A stretch of 36,983 nt of DNA from Methanobacteriota archaeon (GTDB taxonomy: Archaea; Thermoplasmatota; Poseidoniia; Poseidoniales; Thalassarchaeaceae): contig PAOZ01000037.1 in NCBI GenBank assembly GCA_002708695.1, positions 1 through 36,983 on the forward strand, in the 5' to 3' direction. Shown piece by piece: positions 31,671 to 32,734 of this stretch. A model generated the notes under the pieces. It had not been told where the DNA came from. It saw only the letters and a list, made by a program, of their open reading frames with translations, and made no database searches. Made by a program: the position numbers and the translations under genes. Position 1 is the stretch's first letter, and each line of letters begins with the position of its first letter.

Positions 31671-31756
31671 CCGTGACATGCACTATGATTCAGAATCAAT
31701 GATTTTGACTCTCATGCTTACAATGTTTGAAATTGTAGAAATTTTCAAATTCATTT

Positions 31757-32698
31757 ATGGTTGACATAAACCGAGCGTTTATTGCATCATCTATTGTTTT
31801 GAATATTCTTCTTGCAATAGTTCTCTACACAGTCATTTCAAGTGAAGAACCATCTAATCCGGAAATAATATTTTTTGAGCGTTCTGAAGAAAATAAAATT
31901 GAATTTGATCGTGATGAGGTAGTTCGTGTTGCTACTTTCAATATTCGAACATTTGGAGTTACTAAGATGGGTAAACCTGAAGTTGTATCGGAATTAGTCC
32001 AAATTTTCGATCGATATGACATGGTAACAGTTCAAGAAATAAAAGATATCAATCAAGAAGTACCATACAGGTTTTTGGATGAATTAAAAAATGAATCATC
32101 AGAAGATTGGGAAATGTTGTTGTCAGAACGTAGTGGGCAACAAGAGGACGATATTGGTGGCCAGGAGCAATATGCCGTATTCTATCGAAACACTGCAGTC
32201 GTTCCATCTGATGATTATATGTTGTACAATGATTCTGAATTAGACGAATTTTATAGAGAGCCATTCTTGACAGAATTCACTGTGTTAACCAAGAATGGTC
32301 AAATTTCTAATTTGACATTTCTCATGATTTCAATTCATACTTCACCAGAAGTAACAGTAGAAGAACTGCAATCATTATCTAATCTGACTATGAGTTTTCC
32401 AGAATCTAAGAGATTGATTATCTTAGGGGATATGAATGCGGATTGTAACTACGCGTCACTTAATGAGTTAGATTCACTTAAGATACGTAATTCAAATTTT
32501 ACATGGATTGTACCCGATGATGCTGATACTACATTTTCTTCAACTAGGTGTGCTTATGATCGTATAATTCTCGATGAACAAATTTCTAGTTCTTACACTG
32601 GATGGTGGGGAATAGATCGAGAAATGAGTAATTCGAACGTATCCGATCATTTTCCTATATGGTTCGAACTTCTTCGTCCATCCTCGACTCTAAATTAG
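31757..32698 (+). CDS. Membrane-anchored/secreted DNase I-like endonuclease (EEP superfamily)
   Basis: N-terminal TM helix. VATFNIRTFGVTKM, RYDMVTVQEIKD, ISIHTSPE, LGDMNADCNYASL, FTWIVPDDADTTFSSTRCAYDRIIL and SDHFPIWFELL. Confidence 0.9.
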   Translation: MVDINRAFIASSIVLNILLAIVLYTVISSEEPSNPEIIFFERSEENKIEFDRDEVVRVATFNIRTFGVTKMGKPEVVSELVQIFDRYDMVTVQEIKDINQEVPYRFLDELKNESSEDWEMLLSERSGQQEDDIGGQEQYAVFYRNTAVVPSDDYMLYNDSELDEFYREPFLTEFTVLTKNGQISNLTFLMISIHTSPEVTVEELQSLSNLTMSFPESKRLIILGDMNADCNYASLNELDSLKIRNSNFTWIVPDDADTTFSSTRCAYDRIILDEQISSSYTGWWGIDREMSNSNVSDHFPIWFELLRPSSTLN

Positions 32699-32734
32699 TC
32701 CATTTAATTCGGACAAATGGCTGGAACATTGACT

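What the first reader, a model, noticed from the sequence alone, without database searches (positions are those of the whole stretch)
31757..32698. Animal DNase I-like membrane-anchored nuclease directly downstream of the archaellum operon
The protein resembles the pancreatic DNase I lineage more than generic EEP enzymes. Examples are ATFNIRTFGVTKM (animal: AAFNIRTFGETKM), FTWIVPDDADTTFSSTRCAYDRIIL (animal: FQWLIPDSADTTATPTHCAYDRIVV) and GDMNADCNYASL (animal: GDFNAGCSYV). The expected catalytic positions (Glu in VQE, His in SIH, Asp/Asn in GDMNA, Asp in AYDR, His in SDH) are all present. The protein has only two cysteines, at the positions of the essential DNase I disulfide, consistent with an extracellular fold. 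An N-terminal TM helix suggests it is tethered outside the cell. Inference: it degrades extracellular DNA for phosphate or nucleotides. A link to motility is only positional.
Basis: partly seen in the sequence, partly recalled or inferred. Interest (0 to 1): 0.7.

Follow-up and report, generated by a model that had tools for sequence, protein, structure and literature searches.

The report
Surface DNase I of marine archaea
This ocean archaeon carries an intact, membrane-tethered relative of animal DNase I that probably chops up DNA outside the cell; its place next to the swimming-filament genes is a recent accident, because close relatives keep the same gene elsewhere.

Summary
The ORF at 31757-32698 (313 aa) is real and under strong purifying selection (dN/dS about 0.07-0.10). 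It belongs to the DNase I family in the strict sense. phmmer against the PDB hits only DNase I and DNase1L3 (best E 2.4e-35). The AlphaFold model's ten best PDB matches are all DNase I or DNase1L3 (TM 0.81-0.87 by target). Every catalytic residue and both cysteines of the essential disulfide are present; across 74 homologues the cysteines are always kept or lost together. An N-terminal helix, excess N-glycosylation sequons in Poseidoniales homologues, and lipoprotein and SNase-PKD-fused homologues all point to an outward-facing, tethered nuclease. Two parts need correcting. (1) "Animal-like" means DNase I family, not kinship with animals: a Vibrio plasmid protein is closer to bovine DNase I, and the tree leaves animals, Vibrio and archaeal clades unresolved. 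(2) The archaellum link is incidental: only 4 of 9 genomes of the genus have the gene there, the other 5 have arlJ directly against nth, and a complete genome of the other family has the loci about 100 kb apart. Most likely role: attacking extracellular DNA, probably as food; uptake steps are not identified. New member of a known kind.

The parts
31757..32698 (+). CDS of a membrane-tethered DNase I-family nuclease, 313 aa
   Evidence: dN/dS 0.07-0.10
31763..31840 (+). N-terminal transmembrane helix (residues 3-28), a predicted signal anchor with no lipobox
   Evidence: AlphaFold helix H3-28; hydrophobic N-terminus in all 16 aligned homologues
31919..32674 (+). DNase I catalytic domain (about residues 55-306)
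   Evidence: phmmer 56-301, Foldseek
32036..32038 (+). E94, equivalent of bovine E39 (metal ligand)
32165..32167 (+). E137, equivalent of bovine E78 (pairs with H134)
32336..32338 (+). H194, equivalent of bovine H134 (catalytic)
32429..32446 (+). D225, N227 and C230, equivalents of bovine D168, N170 and C173
32549..32560 (+). C265 and D268, equivalents of bovine C209 and D212
32645..32650 (+). D297-H298, equivalents of bovine D251-H252 (catalytic His)
31690..31756 (+). upstream block conserved between genomes in which the gene lies after arlJ and genomes in which it lies after an MTAP-like gene; presumed own promoter that moved with the gene
   Evidence: alignment; between-group identity 0.76 in the best 20 columns against 0.34-0.43 further upstream

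Best explanation
The gene encodes a true DNase I-family endonuclease of Ca. Poseidoniales (Marine Group II). An uncleaved N-terminal helix (residues 3-28) anchors it in the cytoplasmic membrane, and a roughly 25-residue linker holds the catalytic domain outside. There, a disulfide (C230-C265) and Ca2+-site residues stabilise the DNase I fold, and the E137-H194 / D268-H298 pairs with E94, D225, N227 and Mg2+ hydrolyse phosphodiester bonds of DNA non-specifically, leaving 5'-phosphates. The likely benefit is breakdown of dissolved or particle-bound DNA for phosphorus, nitrogen and nucleosides. The gene is a self-contained unit with its own upstream region. It moved to the arlJ-nth junction in one sub-lineage of its genus and is not part of the archaellum. 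Shown here: family membership, conserved residues, selection, non-conserved synteny. Inferred: the outside location (about 0.85), DNA hydrolysis (about 0.9), nutritional use (about 0.5).
For: PDB sequence hits are only DNase I and DNase1L3, with a wide gap to the next protein in the profile search. The fold's top 10 are all DNase I/DNase1L3, TM 0.81-0.87 by target and 29-32% identity; next is EEPD1 at 18%. Catalytic residues are invariant in 49/49 Poseidoniales copies; the two cysteines are co-present in 61 and co-absent in 13 of 74 homologues, never single; Ca2+-site positions D107/F109/E112 and D201 are kept. dN/dS is 0.07-0.10. Sequons in the outward part exceed shuffles in the Poseidoniales main and g20 forms (window p=0.05, others 0-0.019). 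The g20 forms carry a lipobox-like PGC, and other Thermoplasmatota forms an SGC. One Thermoplasmatota homologue is an SNase-PKD-DNase I fusion. On a Vibrio plasmid the homologue lies next to a ribonuclease T2 gene. Precedent: Haloferax Hvo_1477, a putative surface lipoprotein nuclease (SNase type), is important for growth on DNA, which serves mainly as a phosphorus source (PMC3929857). SNase is found in only 5 of 294 Poseidoniales genomes, so DNase I could fill that role. Synteny.
Against: No activity data. The DNA minor-groove loop differs from animal enzymes: Y76 is G/S, N74 is Q, R41 is K, and there is a 4-residue insertion, so affinity or preference may differ. No 5'-nucleotidase-C, PhoD or CNT nucleoside transporter was found in 39 related genomes, so a nutritional pathway is not visible with those families. 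Helix topology and disulfide geometry were not measured.
Confidence: 0.68

Rival explanations
1. Same outward nuclease, but its benefit is remodelling of DNA in particles or biofilms (detachment, mucus thinning), or protection from DNA released by lysed neighbours, rather than feeding.
For: Poseidoniales archaella are proposed to serve particle attachment (PMC6461757); extracellular nucleases modulate biofilms in bacteria (PMC3929857); the phosphatase and transporter families searched were not found.
Against: The gene is absent from many archaellum-bearing genera of the same family (g4, g5, g7, g10), so it does not track the attachment apparatus.
Confidence: 0.2
2. A surface defence or DNA-processing nuclease, for example degrading incoming viral DNA or making DNA ready for uptake (EndA-like).
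For: EndA of streptococci is a surface-bound nuclease that processes DNA before internalisation (PMC3929857); archaellum machines are related to type IV pili (general knowledge).
Against: No ComEC/Competence family in 39 relatives; no PADLOC match; no phage or viral-contig relative; not conserved next to the pilus-like machine.
Confidence: 0.08
3. A functional part of the archaellum operon, for example DNA sensing or clearing around the filament.
For: Same strand and 127 bp downstream of arlJ here, and directly after arlJ in four related genomes in all.
Against: Five sister genomes have arlJ directly against nth with no DNase there; the gene sits in several other places; its upstream block travels with it; many archaellum-bearing genera lack it.
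Confidence: 0.03
4. Generic intracellular EEP enzyme (exonuclease III or lipid/inositol phosphatase type).
For: Pfam only calls it Exo_endo_phos (2.3e-9).
Against: The genome's ExoIII-type EEP protein is separate (G000:C54) and falls far away in the tree; DNase I-specific disulfide, REP motif and fold.
Confidence: 0.01

Closest known systems
Bovine/human DNase I (PDB 1atn, 2dnj, 4awn)
   Same: Fold (TM 0.85-0.86), catalytic residues, Cys173-Cys209 positions, most Ca2+-site residues
   Different: About 30% identity; membrane helix instead of a cleaved signal peptide; lacks the second cysteine pair 101/104; Y76, N74, R41 and the actin-contact residues Y65/V67 are changed; 4-residue insertion before E137
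DNase1L3 / DNase gamma (PDB 7kiu)
   Same: Only the C173-C209 type cysteine pair; EQYAFLY-like strand (window EQYAVFY); 30% identity
   Different: Secreted animal enzyme; Y76 and N74 kept
Vibrio plasmid DNase I-like protein WP_235676624.1 (L089)
   Same: Catalytic and disulfide residues, hydrophobic N-terminus, Ser at the Y76 position
   Different: Closer to bovine DNase I than the window protein is (36% vs 31%); next to an RNase T2 gene
MnuA family membrane nuclease (NF045851)
   Same: Membrane-tethered DNase I-like concept; weak match over residues 59-194
   Different: 41.5 bits against a cut-off of 185
Haloferax Hvo_1477 / Bacillus YokF surface nucleases
   Same: Proposed job: prokaryotic surface nuclease for feeding on DNA (PMC3929857)
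   Different: Staphylococcal-nuclease fold, lipoprotein; unrelated family

Membership tests
DNase I family (DNase1/DNase1L) | Sequence similarity clearly above that to other EEP families | tested here: met
   2.4e-35 by single sequence, 2.8e-53 by profile; next non-DNase I 6.7e-5
DNase I family (DNase1/DNase1L) | Catalytic residues N7, E39, E78, H134, D168, N170, D212, D251, H252 | tested here: met
   all present and invariant in 49 Poseidoniales copies
DNase I family (DNase1/DNase1L) | Essential disulfide Cys173-Cys209 | tested here: met
   C230/C265 at aligned positions; co-present 61, co-absent 13, single 0 of 74 homologues; geometry of the pair not measured
DNase I family (DNase1/DNase1L) | Ca2+-binding sites (D99/D107/F109/E112; D201/T203/T205/T207) | tested here: inconclusive
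   D107, F109, E112, D201 and T203 equivalents present; D99 falls in a gap, though a nearby D159 is invariant in A1; T205 is S
DNase I family (DNase1/DNase1L) | Minor-groove contacts R41, N74, Y76 | tested here: not met
   K, Q and G in the window; N74 and Y76 are also changed in most other prokaryotic homologues, and DNase1L3 has K at 41; this affects substrate contact and I do not treat it as defining membership
DNase I family (DNase1/DNase1L) | DNase I fold closer than other EEP folds | tested here: met
   top 10 Foldseek matches, TM 0.81-0.87 by target; EEPD1 0.71-0.76, ExoIII 0.61
DNase I family (DNase1/DNase1L) | Ca2+/Mg2+-dependent, non-specific DNA nicking | not testable with these tools
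   needs enzyme assay
MnuA membrane nuclease (NF045851) | Score above the curated cut-off of 185 bits | tested here: not met
   41.5 bits
ExeM/NucH extracellular nuclease (NF033681) | Score above the curated cut-off of 300 bits | tested here: not met
   17.8 bits
Archaellum operon gene | Conserved co-location and co-occurrence with arlHIJ | tested here: not met
   adjacent in 4 of 9 genus members with the gene; empty arlJ-nth junction in the other 5; absent from archaellum-bearing g4, g5, g7, g10

The most novel reading that the evidence does not exclude
Animal-type DNase I descends from an old prokaryotic surface-nuclease family, of which the Poseidoniales enzyme is a major living archaeal branch, and it is the main tool by which abundant surface-ocean archaea feed on dissolved DNA.
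Probability: 0.15. Interest if true: 0.6.

Novelty: new member of a known kind. Interest (0 to 1): 0.35.

Why it matters
Marine Group II archaea are abundant in surface seawater and uncultivated. A DNase I-family surface enzyme in about a third of 294 sampled genomes (100 of 294; 15 of 35 near-complete ones) suggests a route to dissolved DNA, a phosphorus-rich pool. The main texts of the two major genome surveys of the group contain neither 'nuclease' nor 'DNase'. It also shows that DNase I with its signature disulfide is not confined to animals, and gives a set of diverged natural enzymes for studying which DNA contacts are needed.

Tried and rejected
Special kinship with animal enzymes: not supported. 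Archaellum function: adjacency not conserved. Transfer of the gene from Poseidoniaceae into this Thalassarchaeaceae genus: the tree nests it beside genus g14 (88/90), but the AU test does not reject the alternative (p=0.283); G191 keeps the gene in the same gene neighbourhood as g14 and g12 genomes, so vertical descent with loss is equally possible. Operator: the palindrome TACAAT-N7-ATTGTA at 31719-31737 is the only exact copy in the genome, but near-matches are only slightly above control (24 vs 16 at up to one mismatch) and it is broken in relatives; no regulon. DNA-uptake machine: no ComEC family. Phage origin: no relative in phage records or viral contigs; the viral scan used only two peptide patterns. 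Sigma-70 and terminator scans: at chance.

Full report
Observation. The reading frame 31757-32698 (+) encodes 313 residues exactly as described. The window is part of a 1.77-Mb, about 70%-complete assembly. Near relatives are titled Euryarchaeota archaeon or Candidatus Thalassarchaeaceae archaeon, which places it in Ca. Poseidoniales (Marine Group II), family Thalassarchaeaceae. The codon pattern is that of a functional gene: dN/dS is 0.07-0.10 in the close pairs of near relatives, and no higher in the pairs where dS is saturated.

Family. Pfam gives only the superfamily (Exo_endo_phos, 2.3e-9). Against all PDB chains, phmmer finds only DNase I (2.4e-35) and DNase gamma (1e-30). A profile of 16 Poseidoniales homologues finds DNase I at 2.8e-53 and the next protein, EEPD1, at 6.7e-5. 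The AlphaFold model (pLDDT 82.9, pTM 0.80) has ten DNase I/DNase1L3 structures as its first ten Foldseek matches (TM 0.81-0.87 by target length, 29-32% identity); EEPD1 follows at 18% identity, then Tdp2 and others. NCBIfam's MnuA and ExeM/NucH models score far below their cut-offs.

Residues. The bovine catalytic set N7, E39, E78, H134, D168, N170, D212, D251, H252 corresponds to window N62, E94, E137, H194, D225, N227, D268, D297, H298, and each is invariant in the 49 Poseidoniales copies. The two cysteines C230 and C265 match C173 and C209. Across 74 homologues they are both present (61) or both absent (13), never alone, as expected for a disulfide. Ca2+-site positions D107, F109, E112, D201 and T203 are kept; D99 falls in a gap. 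The DNA minor-groove contacts differ (R41 to K, N74 to Q, Y76 to G, with a 4-residue insertion), as do the actin contacts Y65/V67, so substrate affinity may differ and actin inhibition is not expected.

Location outside the cell. The model has an N-terminal helix 3-28 followed by a low-confidence linker; all 16 aligned homologues have such a hydrophobic N-terminus. N-glycosylation sequons exceed shuffled expectation in the window protein (6 vs 2.85, p=0.05) and in every other Poseidoniales main or g20 form tested (p 0-0.019), but not in bovine, Vibrio, other Thermoplasmatota or type-2 forms. Genus g20 copies have a lipobox-like PGC and several other Thermoplasmatota copies an SGC. One of the Thermoplasmatota copies is fused to an SNase and a PKD domain. 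These are indirect but agree.

Animal affinity. Bovine DNase I matches a Vibrio plasmid protein better (36%, 160 bits) than the window protein (31%, 139 bits). In a maximum-likelihood tree the Poseidoniales main clade (97/95), the animal clade (99/97), the Vibrio protein and the other Thermoplasmatota clade (100/100) are not resolved relative to each other. Animals plus Vibrio are one side of a weakly supported branch (45/94.9), and an animals-plus-Poseidoniales grouping without Vibrio is neither found nor rejected (AU p=0.192). The correct statement is 'DNase I family', not 'animal lineage'. Bacterial sampling was thin.

Distribution and archaellum link. In 294 Poseidoniales genomes the protein is found in 100, in 9 of 22 genera. 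In this family only the window's genus has it; in the other family it is common but patchy. ArlI is found in many genera without the nuclease, such as g4, g5, g7 and g10. Within the genus, 9 genomes have the gene; in 4 it follows arlJ (G000, G073, G030, G241). In the other 5 (G191, G152, G130, G181, G161) arlJ abuts nth directly, with no nuclease there. In those the gene lies after an MTAP-like gene and, where the contig continues, before a methyltransferase gene, or beside a DedA-like gene (gene names by eye). In G191 it lies in the same neighbourhood ('SISQTPDA' protein, 'GRPG' protein, SDR and galactokinase-like genes) as in the other family's G145, G002 and G022, each of which has most of these genes. 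In the single-contig genome G002 the nuclease and arlI are about 100 kb apart. The last 65-70 bp upstream are similar whether the gene follows arlJ or the MTAP-like gene, so the gene probably moved with its own promoter. The arlJ-nth junction also holds other inserts downstream of the nuclease in L003 and L004 (in L003 the contig ends before nth), so it looks like a spot that accepts genes.

Function. An outward, Mg2+/Ca2+-type DNA endonuclease is the direct reading. Feeding on DNA is the best guess. Haloferax uses a putative surface nuclease of another fold (SNase) for growth on DNA, mainly as a phosphorus source (PMC3929857), and SNase is nearly absent from Poseidoniales (5 of 294). Against a simple nutritional story, no 5'-nucleotidase-C, PhoD, CNT transporter or ComEC family was found in 39 relatives; other phosphatases and transporters were not searched. 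The main texts of the two large Marine Group II genome papers contain neither 'nuclease' nor 'DNase'; supplements could not be read, so earlier mention cannot be excluded.

Verdict. It is a new archaeal member of a known enzyme family with a plausible ecological role. The two points that made it look special, animal lineage and archaellum neighbourhood, do not hold.

Noticed in passing
L069:1344-2879 (-): Thermoplasmatota protein fusing staphylococcal nuclease, a PKD domain and a DNase I-like domain in one predicted surface protein.
   Followed up: partly
L080, L081, L082, L086: A second, diverged DNase I-like paralogue ('type 2') in some Poseidoniaceae, with a longer N-terminus and extra cysteines near the Ca2+ site.
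   Followed up: partly
window:31630-31756 and 32699-32734; L003:7011-7559; L004:7017-10232: The arlJ-nth junction holds different extra genes in close relatives (DNase; plus a 182-aa lipoprotein-like ORF in L003; plus a 1071-aa ORF in L004), like an insertion hotspot.
   Followed up: partly
window:31719-31737: Perfect palindrome TACAAT-N7-ATTGTA about 20 bp upstream of the DNase start, the only exact copy in the genome; not kept in the MTAP-linked relatives.
   Followed up: yes
window:32735-35337: nth (endonuclease III-like) and a PolX-type polymerase with PHP domain lie together and stay together downstream of the archaellum genes across the genus.
   Followed up: no
L089:1-1379: On a Vibrio plasmid the DNase I-like gene directly follows a ribonuclease T2 gene: a possible nucleic-acid scavenging pair.
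   Followed up: no
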